Virus record (IMG/VR): IMGVR_UViG_3300030098_005045
Span: 1-20,911 of that record
DNA: 20,911 nucleotides
Reading direction: 5' to 3' (one strand)
DNA from: a virus
Made by a program: the position numbers and the translations under genes. The notes below the pieces were generated by a model that searched no databases, had not been told where the DNA came from, and saw nothing but the letters and a program-made list of their open reading frames with translations. Every line of letters begins with the position of its first letter. The stretch's first letter is position 1. Of this stretch, positions 1 through 9,345 are shown piece after piece.

Positions 1-51
1 TTTTCTAATTAATTTTATTTCATGATTTCTTATACCCCACCCTATTAACAT
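1..51 (-). CDS. Start of an unidentified gene, cut by the window edge
   Basis: An ATG at 51-49 opens a frame that stays open for 17 codons to base 1, beginning MLIGWGIRNHEIK. It overlaps the stop codon of the HNH gene (45-47), the same kind of tight start/stop overlap used by most neighbouring genes. Seventeen codons are too few to identify a family. HNH endonucleases often sit next to terminase genes in siphovirus genomes, so a terminase subunit is a guess from context only. The frame could also close just outside the window. Confidence 0.35.
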   Translation of the reverse strand, partial: MLIGWGIRNHEIKLIRK

Positions 52-395
52 TTATTTTTTTTTTTATCGTGCCCTTCATACCCGCTTTTAATATTATGAC
101 ACCTGTGACACAAACTTTGTAAATTATTCTCCGCTAAAGCTAACTCAGGATTAGTTCTAACTCTTTTAATATGGTCTACCACTTTCGCTTCTATTATTTT
201 ATTAAATCTTTTACATACTTCACATAGAGGTTCTTTAGTAATATAATAATTTCTTAGTCTCTTCCATTTATTTGTATTATAAAAGGTTGTATGTTCTCTT
301 TTAGTAATAAACGATTTTCTTTTACCATTCTCCCCTATATTTTTAGGGTCTATAGCAATCCACGTTTTATTCTTTCCTTTAGGTTTTGTTGGCAT
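45..395 (-). CDS. HNH endonuclease
   Basis: A 116-residue protein with a complete small HNH nuclease domain. The N-terminal 35 residues are basic. A conserved helix (FYNTNKWKRLRNYY, about 39-51) is followed by a zinc-binding CxxC pair (C58, C61), the VDHI motif with the Asp74-His75 catalytic pair, an Asn-Asn at 90-91, and the second zinc pair within CHRCHNIKS (C96, C99), ending in the metal-binding H100-N101. This is the layout of phage HNH proteins that nick or cut DNA, some of which act with terminase during packaging. The start overlaps the stop of the upstream gene in a TAATG. Assignment to the family is secure. Whether it serves packaging, DNA degradation or homing is not shown here. Confidence 0.9.
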   Translation of the reverse strand: MPTKPKGKNKTWIAIDPKNIGENGKRKSFITKREHTTFYNTNKWKRLRNYYITKEPLCEVCKRFNKIIEAKVVDHIKRVRTNPELALAENNLQSLCHRCHNIKSGYEGHDKKKNKC

Positions 396-2537: not shown

Positions 2538-2939
2538 TTATACTTTTTGTTTTTTGCTTAATAAATCTACTTTGTCATTTCTTATTTTTTTTAGCTTTTC
2601 TATTTGACTATCAATACTTTTAATATTTTTAACTAAATCAATCGCTACTGTATCTCGATTTAAAATACCTATAATAGTATTATATTCATTAGTTGCTTTT
2701 GGTTCATTATTATCTAAATAACCTTGTAACGTTTTATTATGATGTATTACAGAACTATGATTCATATTTAAAGCTTTGCCTATATCTAAAAATTTCATTC
2801 CTAAATCATTTCTTAAAATATAACACAATTGTCTTCTGGCTTCCATTATATGTCTTTTACGACTTTTGCCTAAAATATCTCCAGTTGATAAATCATAATA
2901 GTTACTAATAATATCTTTTATTATTTTTAATTCTTCCAT
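2538..2939 (-). CDS. Stand-alone DnaA domain IV (DnaA-box-binding) protein
   Basis: 133 residues. Residues about 5-75 correspond to the C-terminal DNA-binding domain of the chromosomal initiator DnaA. The helix DIISNYYDLSTGDILGKSRK is followed by MEARRQLCYILRNDLGMKF, and then by the DnaA signature helix in the form MNHSSVIHHNKTL, equivalent to the usual DHSTVxHAxxxI. The AAA+ ATPase domain and the N-terminal DnaB-interaction domain are absent. The rest (about 95-133) is a Lys-rich helical coil. The protein should recognise DnaA boxes but cannot hydrolyse ATP or oligomerise like DnaA. It could mark a phage origin, compete with host DnaA, or act as a repressor. The neighbouring helicase-loader-like gene supports replication. 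Confidence 0.85.
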   Translation of the reverse strand: MEELKIIKDIISNYYDLSTGDILGKSRKRHIMEARRQLCYILRNDLGMKFLDIGKALNMNHSSVIHHNKTLQGYLDNNEPKATNEYNTIIGILNRDTVAIDLVKNIKSIDSQIEKLKKIRNDKVDLLSKKQKV

Positions 2940-2941
2940 TT

Positions 2942-3400
2942 TTAATATCCTTTTTTTTGTCGATTAATATTTTCGTTTACTTTACTAAAATAATAATTAT
3001 AAATTGTATGAGCTTCTAACCCCATTGATAAAGCATAATTAATTAAAAAATGGAAACAATCAATCCATTCAAAAATTAATTCTTTTCTTTCATCTTCAGA
3101 TAAATCTTTTAAATACATAAATTTGTATTTATTATGTTTAGCTTTCCATGTTTTCCATACCGCATTATTATCATTACCACCTAATGCATCTGTCATTTCA
3201 TGGATTTCATCAATTAGTGCATGAGTATTAGTGTGCCAATAATCCATAATTTCACTTATTGTTAAATCTTTAAAATTTATTTTGTATGTTTCTTCTTGTA
3301 ATTTTTTTTGGGTATTTATAATATCCGCTAAAGGATTTATAGACTCCGTATATTTATCTAATATTTCTAAATTTTTACATTCATTATCTTTATTTGCCAT
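2942..3400 (-). CDS. All-alpha NTP pyrophosphatase, dUTPase-like
   Basis: 152 residues of the all-alpha NTP pyrophosphatase superfamily. The metal-binding helices are visible: LIDEIHEMTDAL (Glu65, Glu68, Asp71) and ELIFEWIDCFHFLIN (Glu111, Asp114). The C-terminal YNYYFSKVNENINRQKKGY is the substrate-binding tail characteristic of dimeric dUTPases. The expected reaction is dUTP to dUMP plus pyrophosphate. The same superfamily contains the T4 enzyme gp56, which also cleaves dCTP. The gene is two places from the ThyA-family gene, so it probably supplies dUMP or dCMP to it. Which nucleotide is preferred cannot be read from sequence alone; see the finding on the ThyA-family gene. Confidence 0.8.
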   Translation of the reverse strand: MANKDNECKNLEILDKYTESINPLADIINTQKKLQEETYKINFKDLTISEIMDYWHTNTHALIDEIHEMTDALGGNDNNAVWKTWKAKHNKYKFMYLKDLSEDERKELIFEWIDCFHFLINYALSMGLEAHTIYNYYFSKVNENINRQKKGY

Positions 3401-3404
3401 AGTA

Positions 3405-3671
3405 TTATTTATTTAAAACCTCCATAGAAGCAATATAAGCTATCAAATCTAAAAAACTATCGTAATGATGGCCTTTTCTTAGTCTGGCTATTTTTAAGCC
3501 AATTAAGCAAGCGTTTACGTCTTTAGGGGTTATTTGTTTATTTGTTAATATTGACGCAACTTTTGCTGCATCTTTAAAATTGGTTTCAAAGCTTCCGTAT
3601 TTAGACTTAGATTTATTAACTCCATTAATAATATCAGAAGCTTCTTGCATTAATTTGTTTTTTATTTTCAT
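3405..3671 (-). CDS. DUF6378-like protein
   Basis: 88 residues with the pattern of the DUF6378 family: MQEASDIINGVNKSKSKYGSF near the start, a central NACLIGLKIARLRKGHHYD segment, then a closing helix LDLIAYIASMEVLN. Such proteins are common in phage nucleotide-metabolism clusters and have no established activity that I know of. The compact helical shape and the conserved Asp/Lys/Arg residues would suit a nucleotide-related role, perhaps as a diverged MazG-like fold, but this is inference. The gene overlaps the end of the ThyA-family gene by four bases and is followed by the dUTPase-like gene, forming a nucleotide-metabolism block. Confidence 0.65.
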   Translation of the reverse strand: MKIKNKLMQEASDIINGVNKSKSKYGSFETNFKDAAKVASILTNKQITPKDVNACLIGLKIARLRKGHHYDSFLDLIAYIASMEVLNK

Positions 3672-4537
3672 ATTGCTACTTTAAATTTTATATTTTTTCC
3701 GTGTGTATAATTTTTAATTTTAAAATCTTCAAATTTATAATCTAATATTTCTTTTTTCTCCCAATCTTTAATAACCAAAGTTGGACAAAGACTGACAGGA
3801 CTTCTTAAATATTCTTGCATTCCATCAATATGGTCTGCGTAAATATGATAATTACCTAAACTAAAAGTTAAATTACCCGCGGTATAACCACAAGATATAG
3901 CGAAAATATGTAACATTAAAGCATATAAAGCAAAGTCATAAGGGAAGCCAATCATCATGTCAGCACTTCTTTGCATTACTAATAAATCTAATTTAACTCC
4001 AGTATAAGTATTTCTAATATGAAATTGAAAAGTATGATGGCAAGGAGGTAAAGCCATTTTTTTAATATGAAGAGGGTTCCACATTGTTAATAGTAATCTT
4101 CTATTTGATTCACCTTTTTTTAATTCTTTTATTAAAGGTAAAAGTTGGTCATGAGTATTATTAAACTTTCTTAATTGGTAACCATAAATTGGACCTAACG
4201 AACCATTATCGTCTTTTGCCCAGTTATCCCAAATTTTAACTTTATTTTGATTTAAGTATTTTATATTATTACCACCTTTTAATATCCATAATAATTCTGC
4301 TATAAAGTTTTTTGGATATAATTTTCGGGCAGTTAATAAAGGAAATAAAGTTTGATATTCTTTAGTAGCTTGGTTTGAATAAAAACCTTGACCTATGTCT
4401 TCAATCTTAAAATGTCCTCCGAATTTTTCAATTACTTTATGACCTCTGACTTCAGCCATTTGCCCTTCTTCTAATATAGAAGTTAACATCTCTTTATACT
4501 TATATTCCCAAAAATTTAATTTAAAATTTAGTTTCAT
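3668..4537 (-). CDS. ThyA-family enzyme with Asp at the base-recognition site (possible dCMP methylase or hydroxymethylase)
   Basis: 289 residues from Met at 4537, complete for the thymidylate synthase family. Visible: FPLLTARK, the ELLWILKG helix, VKIWDNWA with Trp103, GPIYGYQLRKF, the phosphate-binding Arg146-Arg147, the ALPPCHHTFQF active site with nucleophile Cys166, QRSAD at 189-193, HIY with His231 and Tyr233, and the C-terminal VAI. The usual GLPFNIASYA is GFPYDFALYA, so the Asn that reads uracil (E. coli Asn177) is Asp201. Asp here is the hallmark of dCMP-acting relatives such as T4 dCMP hydroxymethylase. The frame extends to an ATG at 4666, but those 43 extra residues overlap the ERF gene and a micro-gene and lack family similarity. 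The 4537 start overlaps the micro-gene stop (ATGA). The usual RTGTGT loop is diverged. Confidence 0.85.
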   Translation of the reverse strand: MKLNFKLNFWEYKYKEMLTSILEEGQMAEVRGHKVIEKFGGHFKIEDIGQGFYSNQATKEYQTLFPLLTARKLYPKNFIAELLWILKGGNNIKYLNQNKVKIWDNWAKDDNGSLGPIYGYQLRKFNNTHDQLLPLIKELKKGESNRRLLLTMWNPLHIKKMALPPCHHTFQFHIRNTYTGVKLDLLVMQRSADMMIGFPYDFALYALMLHIFAISCGYTAGNLTFSLGNYHIYADHIDGMQEYLRSPVSLCPTLVIKDWEKKEILDYKFEDFKIKNYTHGKNIKFKVAI

Positions 4538-4623
4538 AAATTTGTTGTTAAAATAATTATTAAGCTCATAAAAATTATATAAGCTATCCAAATTGGATAA
4601 GTTTGTTTTATAAATCTTTTCAT
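4534..4623 (-). CDS. Micro-gene: 29-residue membrane peptide
   Basis: A short frame reading MKRFIKQTYPIWIAYIIF and then MSLIIILTTNL. Its ATG overlaps the TGA of the ERF gene (bases 4620-4623), and its TGA overlaps the ATG chosen for the ThyA-family gene (4534-4537). It thus fits without a gap between its neighbours, using the ATGA junction seen elsewhere in this operon. A basic N-terminus is followed by one hydrophobic segment (about 10-26), predicting a single-pass inner-membrane peptide with the N-terminus inside. No function can be assigned. It competes with the longer ThyA-family start at 4666, which would read through it in another frame. Confidence 0.6.
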   Translation of the reverse strand: MKRFIKQTYPIWIAYIIFMSLIIILTTNL

Positions 4624-5048
4624 TGTTTATTATGTTTATTAATTTGGTCTGCATCAAGAGTATCATCGATTAAAAATAAATTACCTAATGCATATTTTTT
4701 ACCATAAGAAGAAGCAGCCCCATATTTTTGGGGCATTTGCATACCTTTCTGGTCTAATCCTATACCAACTATTGCTTTTGCTGAAATTTGATTAACTCCA
4801 TCTGAAATTGTAGCTGTTGATTCTATAACAGGGTTTGCAGCTTCATAAGAACATAATCGTTCATTAATAATAACTGAAACTTTTAAATTATTTAAATAAG
4901 GTTTTAAAGCTTCTAATATATCTTCAGCAGACCTAAAATAATATCTACCAAAAGAGTTATATCTGCTTTTTTTAGATTTAAACTTTACTTGTATTTCAGT
5001 TAACTTTTCGTTTAATGTTTGTTTTTGAAACTTCTTTAATTCATCCAT
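4620..5048 (-). CDS. erf: ERF-family single-strand annealing recombinase
   Basis: 142 residues with the core of the ERF superfamily. The RYNSFGRYYFRSAEDILEAL segment at about 29-48 is the family's first conserved block. It is followed by beta strands (VSVIINERL, ESTATISDG) and the second block QKYGAASSYGKKYALGNLF at 107-125, then an acidic IDDTLDAD. ERF proteins, like phage P22 Erf, anneal complementary single strands and support phage recombination and genome circularisation. Only the annealing domain is present; there is no long C-terminal extension. With the VRR-NUC nuclease and SSB-like protein it makes a plausible recombination set. The stop forms an ATGA with the following micro-gene. 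Confidence 0.88.
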   Translation of the reverse strand: MDELKKFQKQTLNEKLTEIQVKFKSKKSRYNSFGRYYFRSAEDILEALKPYLNNLKVSVIINERLCSYEAANPVIESTATISDGVNQISAKAIVGIGLDQKGMQMPQKYGAASSYGKKYALGNLFLIDDTLDADQINKHNKQ

Positions 5049-8196: not shown

Positions 8197-8676
8197 TTAA
8201 AAATCAAAGTCTTCAATTGTTATCCAAACCTTCTGTCCTTTGTCTAATTGTGCTGCAACACTTTTATAAATTTTTTTATATGCTATTGAGGACTTACCAG
8301 CAAAACCCTTTTCACTTTGGTTATTATTTACGCTATCCGCTACTAATAAACAACCTGAGCTATCTGCTGCTGTATTTCCACAGTGTATTAATATATATTT
8401 AAAATTTGGTACATTTTGAAGTTCTAACATACCTCTTTCATTATTTACTTCTGTAAATCTTGTTTTATATTTATTATAAAAACCTCCTTCCGTTCTATAT
8501 TTAATTTCGTATTTACCTGATGGAATTCTTGTATGATGTTTAATTTTATGTTCTCTAAAAGTGTCTTCAATAACATAACATAAAAATTGTCTGCCTGCTC
8601 GTTTATGATTAAGAGCAAACAATATACCTAAGGTTGATTCTAAAGAGGTTGAATATCTATATAATAACAATTCCAT
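8197..8676 (-). CDS. DUF5675-like protein, candidate peptidoglycan-active lysis protein
   Basis: 159 residues matching the DUF5675 pattern: an N-terminal strand (LLLYRYSTSLESTLGILF), CYVIEDTFRE, then RIPSGKYEIKY, LELQNVPNFKYILIHCGN and SSGCLLVAD. The His98-Cys99-Gly100 then Ser107-Gly108-Cys109 arrangement recalls the HG...SHGC active site of YkuD L,D-transpeptidases, although spacing and context differ. There is no signal peptide. DUF5675 genes sit in lysis modules of many Bacteroidota phages that lack a classical endolysin, and no other endolysin candidate is visible in this window. It probably cuts or remodels host peptidoglycan once the holin opens the membrane. That is inference; the family annotation is not functional. 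Confidence 0.75.
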   Translation of the reverse strand: MELLLYRYSTSLESTLGILFALNHKRAGRQFLCYVIEDTFREHKIKHHTRIPSGKYEIKYRTEGGFYNKYKTRFTEVNNERGMLELQNVPNFKYILIHCGNTAADSSGCLLVADSVNNNQSEKGFAGKSSIAYKKIYKSVAAQLDKGQKVWITIEDFDF

Positions 8677-9083
8677 TATTTAAATTTTTCTAATAATAAA
8701 TTATCAATTACTTTTTGTATATCTTTTTTTGAAGCTTCTAACTCAAACATAATATTTGCTTTAAACCTAATATATTCTTTACCCTTATTAAAAATTATAA
8801 CAGTGGGTAATGAAGAAATATTATACTCTTCTTTTATATTTTCATATTGTCCAATATCAACTCTATATTTTAAACACTCATTTAATTTAGATAAATCTTC
8901 GAATTTATTTTTATCATTCCAATCAGCCCAAAATTCAATAACAACAATATCTTTTGTTATTTTTTTATTAAATTCTTTTTGACTAATAAAATTTTGACAA
9001 TATAATTTATTAGAATTTAAGAATAAAAATCCTATAAAAATTATTAAAGAAAAAATATTATTAACAAATAATTGTTTATTCAT
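8676..9083 (-). CDS. Exported thioredoxin-fold protein lacking the active-site cysteines
   Basis: 135 residues from Met at 9083. A signal peptide (FSLIIFIGFLFL) ends near NKLYCQ, a flavobacterial-style cleavage context. The mature part reads as a thioredoxin fold: IVVIEFWADWNDKN is the beta strand and active-site turn, YRVDIGQYENIKEEYNI the next unit, SSLPTVIIFNKG the cis-Pro strand (Pro93), and the last helix DIQKVIDNLL. WADWNDKN replaces WCGPC, so it cannot be an ordinary disulfide oxidoreductase. A longer start at 9107 would bury the signal peptide and overlaps the previous gene more. It lies in the lysis-like cassette; a chaperone, adaptor or inhibitor role in the periplasm is a guess. 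Confidence 0.75.
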   Translation of the reverse strand: MNKQLFVNNIFSLIIFIGFLFLNSNKLYCQNFISQKEFNKKITKDIVVIEFWADWNDKNKFEDLSKLNECLKYRVDIGQYENIKEEYNISSLPTVIIFNKGKEYIRFKANIMFELEASKKDIQKVIDNLLLEKFK

Positions 9084-9345
9084 AAACTTTATTTTCAATT
9101 CTTTCAATCCTCTGTAATATTTGTTCTAATTGTTTACTTTGATTTAAAATTTCGTTTCTTATCATTTCATCTTTTAAAGTAAACTCTATTTCAGAGACTT
9201 CTGGTTTTGGTTCTTCCATTGCTATATCAATCTTAGCATTTAATTGATAATACATACCAATCATTGAAGCTACTACAAAACCAATACCTATTAAGGTTTT
9301 AATACTAAATTTAAAGGTTGTATCTTCGTTTAATTCTTTTGCCAT
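9076..9345 (-). CDS. Membrane-anchored coiled-coil protein (spanin- or holin-accessory-like)
   Basis: 89 residues. A polar N-terminus (KELNEDTTFKFSIK) precedes one transmembrane helix (about 17-33, LIGIGFVVASMIGMYYQ). After it come a Glu/Pro-rich linker (AMEEPKPEVSEIEF) and a C-terminal coiled coil, LNQSKQLEQILQRIERIENK. This topology, cytoplasmic N-terminus and periplasmic helical rod, is that of inner-membrane spanins and of phage holin-accessory proteins. No outer-membrane lipoprotein partner is obvious nearby. The stop overlaps the thioredoxin-fold gene start region by eight bases. Function inferred from topology and from the lysis-like neighbours. Confidence 0.65.
   Translation of the reverse strand: MAKELNEDTTFKFSIKTLIGIGFVVASMIGMYYQLNAKIDIAMEEPKPEVSEIEFTLKDEMIRNEILNQSKQLEQILQRIERIENKVYE

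What the first reader, a model, noticed from the sequence alone, without database searches (positions are those of the whole stretch)
3668..4537. ThyA-family enzyme with the Asn-to-Asp switch: a likely dCMP methylase/hydroxymethylase
Seen: the block that is GLPFNIASYA in thymidylate synthases reads GFPYDFALYA here, so Asp201 stands where E. coli ThyA has Asn177. The rest of the active site is kept (Cys166, Arg146-Arg147, QRSAD, HIY, C-terminal VAI). Known: Asn177 reads uracil, its Asp mutants favour dCMP, and T4 dCMP hydroxymethylase naturally has Asp there. Trp103, equivalent to the TS Trp that shields the intermediate from water, is retained. That leans towards methyl transfer (5-methyl-dCMP) rather than hydroxymethyl transfer. 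Inference: this phage may replace or partly replace cytosine in its DNA. The all-alpha dUTPase-like gene 2942-3400 could then act on dCTP as T4 gp56 does, and the DUF6378-like gene between them could belong to the same module.
Basis: partly seen in the sequence, partly recalled or inferred. Interest (0 to 1): 0.85.

Follow-up and report, generated by a model that had tools for sequence, protein, structure and literature searches.

The report
Phage enzyme probably methylating dCMP
A small phage carries a thymidylate-synthase-like gene with the one amino-acid change that lets this enzyme read cytosine instead of uracil, next to a gene resembling phage T4's dCTP-destroying enzyme, so it probably makes 5-methyl-dCMP; the kind is known and this is a new member of it.

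Summary
ORF 3668-4537 (-) is a full-length ThyA-fold protein with Asp201 where E. coli ThyA has Asn177. All ten members of its clade, and the wider clade of 15, carry Asp.

The reading is partly supported. dCMP as substrate fits: gene 2942-3400 matches T4 gp56 dCTPases best, and a dNTP pyrophosphatase lies within 3 kb of 112 of 119 sampled Asp-type ThyA genes against 8 of 120 Asn-type. Methyl rather than hydroxymethyl transfer is favoured: the published hydroxymethylase marks are all missing.

DNA-wide cytosine replacement is unproven. A near-complete sister phage lacks the ThyA-DUF6378-gp56 cassette and shows no polymerase or kinase family. The window has no GATC (28 expected) and no CTAG (38 expected), so some restriction enzymes still select on its DNA; a 5mC genome attacked by 5mC-insensitive enzymes would look the same.

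New here: DUF6378 neighbours Asp-type ThyA in six gene arrangements (12/119 loci, 0/120 Asn-type), and the ThyA of PaMx74, from the Xp12 lineage, also has Asp. New member of a known kind.

The parts
3668..4537 (-). Asp-type ThyA (PF00303), 289 aa; Asp201 at the E. coli Asn177 position; probable dCMP C5-methylase
3935..3937 (-). codon GAC of Asp201, the substrate-reading residue in GFPYDFALYA
   Evidence: sequence read directly, alignment
3405..3671 (-). DUF6378 (PF19905) protein, 88 aa, overlapping the end of ThyA by 4 bases; partner of unknown activity, four predicted helices
2942..3400 (-). gp56-type all-alpha dCTPase/dUTPase relative, 152 aa, with the ExxE, ExxD and K..N..RQ..GY-like motifs kept
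   Evidence: PHROG 173 E 2.9e-17; best matches gp56 dCTPase, E 4e-21; alignment
4620..5048 (-). ERF single-strand annealing protein; absent together with the cassette in the sister phage
2538..2939 (-). DnaA C-terminal-domain-like protein; flanks the cassette and is kept in the sister phage

Best explanation
The gene encodes a thymidylate-synthase-fold enzyme that uses dCMP: Asp201 takes the place of Asn177 and reads the cytosine ring. The methylene group of methylene-tetrahydrofolate is transferred and reduced in the closed, TS-like active site, giving 5-methyl-dCMP. The neighbouring gp56-type enzyme hydrolyses dCTP (and dUTP) to dCMP (dUMP), which supplies substrate and lowers the competing dCTP. 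DUF6378 is a helper of unknown activity. The product may enter DNA as 5-methylcytosine through host kinases and the host replisome, fully or in part. Shown here: the residues, the predicted fold, the neighbours, the clade and the cassette. Inferred: activity, product and fate. My estimate is about 0.65 for dCMP as substrate, 0.55 for 5-methyl-dCMP as product, and 0.35 for substantial 5mC in the virion.
For: Asp at position 177 in an otherwise intact TS site. The clade is uniformly Asp. Literature: Asn177Asp switches TS to dCMP giving 5mdCMP, and Asp at 177 marks modified-cytosine contigs (PMC8670742). The hydroxymethylase marks of PMC6400193 are absent. The gp56-like neighbour matches dCTPases best. 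A dNTP pyrophosphatase lies within 3 kb in 112/119 Asp-type against 8/120 Asn-type loci. The lineage of phage Xp12, whose cytosine is 100% 5mC (PMC7653180), has an Asp-type ThyA next to a nucleotide pyrophosphohydrolase (PaMx74).
Against: No activity data exist for this clade. His147 is kept, whereas position 147 is the second discriminating position in PMC8670742 and the other nine clade members have Tyr or Phe. No dNMP kinase, dCMP deaminase or polymerase family was found in the window genes scanned. Complete avoidance of GATC and CTAG shows that restriction still acts on this genome. One Asn-type locus (L167) also has gp56 and DUF6378, so these partners are not exclusive to Asp-type enzymes.
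Confidence: 0.55

Rival explanations
1. Ordinary or relaxed thymidylate synthase: despite Asp at 177 it still makes dTMP from dUMP, with the gp56-like enzyme acting as dUTPase to supply dUMP.
For: Everything else in the active site, including His147, is TS-like. gp56 enzymes are dCTPase and dUTPase (PMC8056088). Neighbouring Asp-type operons carry trimeric dUTPase and dCMP deaminase, enzymes of dTMP synthesis.
Against: Asp is uniform across deeply diverged ThyA clades, which an enzyme needing to read uracil would not be expected to keep. Mutant work cited in PMC8670742 reports the switch to dCMP.
Confidence: 0.2
2. dCMP methylase used for thymidylate supply: 5-methyl-dCMP is deaminated to dTMP by a host or phage deaminase and no modified base enters DNA.
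For: dCMP deaminase genes lie beside Asp-type ThyA in L035, L042, L061, L071 and L087. A 'new thymidylate biosynthesis' in Xp12-infected cells was reported in 1982 (title in the reference list read; content from memory). It fits the persisting restriction-site avoidance.
Against: No deaminase was found in the window genes scanned or in the sister phage genes scanned. A dCTPase would be more useful for excluding dC from DNA.
Confidence: 0.15
3. dCMP hydroxymethylase like T4 gp42, giving 5-hydroxymethyl-dCMP.
For: Asp at 177 and a gp56-type neighbour, as in T4.
Against: Leu, not Asp/Glu, at Cys-3; Pro116-Ile117 and no Ser/Thr before the catalytic Tyr118; full C-terminal tail. The model is very close to TS.
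Confidence: 0.1

Closest known systems
Asp177-type thymidylate synthases of modified-cytosine phage contigs (MetaGPA, PMC8670742)
   Same: PF00303 with Asp at 177; an all-alpha pyrophosphohydrolase nearby
   Different: His147 kept here; no deaminase or carbamoyltransferase found in the window; the link to DUF6378 is not mentioned in the passages read
Xp12 / Pamexvirus ThyA (dCMP methylase candidate of 5mC phages; PaMx74 read here)
   Same: Asp in a GLPYD block, next to a nucleotide pyrophosphohydrolase
   Different: Only 24% identical; Pro at 147 and an insertion before Cys; that phage has its own DNA polymerase, deaminase and DHFR
T4 gp42 dCMP hydroxymethylase with gp56 dCTPase
   Same: Asp at the base-reading position; gp56 relative in the same phage
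   Different: 22% identity; hydroxymethylation residues absent and C-terminal tail present here
E. coli ThyA
   Same: 37-38% identity, same fold and active site, Z 36.7
   Different: Asn177 is Asp here

Membership tests
Thymidylate synthase superfamily (PF00303) | profile match and fold | tested here: met
   E 9.6e-77; AF2 model Z 36.7 to E. coli TS
Thymidylate synthase (dUMP-specific) | Asn at E. coli position 177 | tested here: not met
   Asp201
dCMP-using TS relatives | Asp at position 177 | tested here: met
dCMP-using TS relatives | turnover of dCMP | not testable with these tools
   needs an enzyme assay
dCMP hydroxymethylase (T4 gp42 type) | Asp/Glu three residues before the catalytic Cys | tested here: not met
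   Leu163-Pro-Pro-Cys166 (mark from PMC6400193)
dCMP hydroxymethylase (T4 gp42 type) | Ser/Thr just before the catalytic Tyr (T4 Ser94, two before Tyr96; structurally EcTS Val93) | tested here: not met
   Gly115-Pro116-Ile117-Tyr118: no Ser/Thr at either place
dCMP hydroxymethylase (T4 gp42 type) | short C-terminus without the TS closing tail | tested here: not met
   tail present, ends VAI, aligned to the E. coli TS end
dCMP methylase (Xp12 type) | 5mC replaces C in virion DNA | not testable with these tools
   needs LC-MS; the Xp12 record MT664984 is not held
gp56 dCTPase/dUTPase | ExxE and ExxD motifs and the K..N..RQ..GY motif of the gp56 alignment | tested here: met
   alignment with T4, Aeromonas phage 25 and PAU; tblastn E 4e-21; Pfam dUTPase_2 only below its cut-off
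gp56 dCTPase/dUTPase | hydrolysis of dCTP | not testable with these tools
   needs an enzyme assay

The most novel reading that the evidence does not exclude
A phage of roughly 28 kb without its own DNA polymerase acquired a portable three-gene cassette (dCMP methylase, DUF6378, gp56-type dCTPase) that makes the host replisome put 5-methylcytosine into phage DNA, with DUF6378 a new component of such pathways.
Probability: 0.2. Interest if true: 0.65.

Novelty: new member of a known kind. Interest (0 to 1): 0.45.

Why it matters
Asp-type ThyA enzymes are common in environmental phages, while family libraries simply call them thymidylate synthases. Here the gene sits in a cassette that a close sister phage lacks, so the effect of the cassette on DNA composition and on restriction can be tested by comparison. 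The recurring DUF6378 neighbour gives a testable lead for a domain that is very common in mycobacteriophages. The Asp in the Xp12-lineage ThyA names a candidate for the 5mC step that the AXL1 paper (PMC9206674) left open.

Tried and rejected
Close relatives by peptide pattern in viral and genome contigs: none found. Xp12, Bosa and FMYAK-P1 records: not held, so PaMx74 was used. DUF6378 fold: model pLDDT 80, no convincing PDB match (best Foldseek E 3.7; best VIA Z 4.9, to YqeY, which is within the noise for helical bundles), so no fold assigned. gp56-like protein against PDB sequences: no match. Trp103 as evidence for methylation: rejected, T4 gp42 has Trp there too. Restriction-site avoidance as a yes/no test of 5mC: rejected as decisive, because enzymes at GATC and CTAG may be insensitive to 5mC (PMC7653180 reports that several enzymes whose own methylase is N6A or N4C still cut Xp12 DNA). 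In the large MAFFT alignment the columns just before Cys and Tyr are shifted for T4 gp42, so its marks were taken from PMC6400193 instead. First IQ-TREE run failed on thread count and was repeated.

Full report
Observation. ORF 3668-4537 on the minus strand encodes 289 aa and matches Pfam Thymidylat_synt. Aligned to E. coli ThyA, the catalytic residues are kept, while Asn177 is Asp201 in GFPYDFALYA. An AF2 model has pLDDT 93 and matches E. coli TS at Z 36.7, 1.1 A over 259 residues.

What the Asp means. PMC8670742 states that Asn177Asp switches TS to dCMP with 5mdCMP as product, and found positions 177 (Asp) and 147 to be the best markers of modified-cytosine contigs. PMC5175136 gives Asp at this place as the mark of cytosine-using enzymes. 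PMC6400193 gives the marks of hydroxymethylation: Asp/Glu three residues before the catalytic Cys and a Ser/Thr just before the catalytic Tyr, in an enzyme without the TS tail. Here Cys-3 is Leu163, the residues before Tyr118 are Gly-Pro-Ile, and the tail ends VAI. The site is that of a methyl-transferring enzyme with a cytosine-reading residue. A caution: His147 is kept, while the other nine members of the clade have Tyr or Phe.

Relatives. A pattern for QRSAD...GxP[YF]D found at least 119 viral contigs; the same pattern with Asn gave 120 controls. The window protein groups with L117, L052, L077, L071, L114, L104, L081, L058 and L054 (FastTree support 0.91); IQ-TREE recovers the same ten and puts them in a wider all-Asp clade of 15 (UFBoot 87). 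Asp is thus old and kept in this lineage. PaMx74, of the lineage of phage Xp12, also has Asp in GLPYD, next to a nucleotide pyrophosphohydrolase and a dCMP deaminase. Xp12 DNA has 5mC for 100% of C (PMC7653180); the Xp12 record itself is not held here.

Neighbours. Gene 2942-3400 finds T4-type gp56 dCTPases as its best relatives (34% identity, E 4e-21; PHROG 173) and keeps their motifs. Within 3 kb, a dNTP pyrophosphatase (MazG, trimeric dUTPase or gp56) lies near 112 of 119 Asp-type and 8 of 120 Asn-type ThyA genes; a search without iteration gave a similar number of MazG hits. Most of the 119 belong to one marine group, so the counts are not independent. DUF6378 lies within 3 kb of 12 of 119 Asp-type and 0 of 120 Asn-type genes. 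The arrangements differ: ThyA-DUF6378-gp56 (window); DUF6378-ThyA-dUTPase (L117, L052, L077); DUF6378-dUTPase-ThyA-deaminase (L071); MazG-DUF6378-(Dam)-ThyA (L104, L114, L081); DUF6378-ThyA-MazG fusion (L058); DUF6378-ThyA-MazG-deaminase (L035, L042, L061, L087). Against exclusivity, DUF6378 occurs in over a thousand mycobacteriophage records, and one Asn-type locus (L167) has gp56 and DUF6378.

A cassette. Sister contigs L128 and L129 are syntenic with the window (for example 87% for the metallophosphoesterase and 98% for the holin) but lack ERF, ThyA, DUF6378 and gp56, with two other ORFs in their place; PF00303 is absent from both records. The 26,325-base sister runs from terminase small subunit to HNH, so it is close to a whole genome, and the genes scanned include no polymerase or kinase family. 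By synteny the window lacks only about 7 kb of head and packaging genes. The phage therefore probably replicates with the host's polymerase and would depend on host kinases for 5-methyl-dCTP. That step is inference.

Restriction pressure. In the window GATC is absent (28 expected) and CTAG is absent (38 expected); no other 4-mer with 15 or more expected is so depleted. The sister lacks GATC, CCGG, GCGC and GTAC but has CTAG as expected. The cassette region (2942-5048) has no GATC or CTAG either (about 6.7 expected together). So restriction has acted on this genome at some cytosine-containing sites. A fully 5mC genome resists most but not all enzymes: several whose own methylase is N6A or N4C still cut Xp12 DNA. 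The pattern lowers the case for a fully protected genome without deciding it.

Verdict. The enzyme-level reading (dCMP, methyl transfer) is the best supported; DNA-wide replacement is open. New member of a known kind, with DUF6378 as a new lead.

Noticed in passing
window 1-20911; sister L252 and L129: Complete absence of GATC and CTAG in the window, and of GATC, CCGG, GCGC and GTAC in the sister: strong restriction-site avoidance that differs between two close phages.
   Followed up: partly
L007, L015, L034, L056, L062 and most of L007-L125: A large group of Asp-type ThyA lacks the Trp at E. coli W83 and is followed by a protein with a MazG domain behind an N-terminal part that looks GIY-YIG-like by eye.
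   Followed up: partly
L252:4242-6221: The sister phage's prohead protease ORF (659 aa) carries an extra P-loop-like segment (GCSCSGKST) ahead of the S78 peptidase domain.
   Followed up: no
window 45-395; ends of L128 and L129: All three contigs end within about 50 bases of the HNH gene, suggesting a real genome end (packaging site) there.
   Followed up: no
L127:1797-2693: ThyA of Pamexvirus PaMx74 has Asp at position 177; the AXL1 paper (PMC9206674) calls the mechanism of modification in this lineage unknown.
   Followed up: partly
window 8676-9107: Thioredoxin-like protein beside a DUF5675 gene and near a holin.
   Followed up: no
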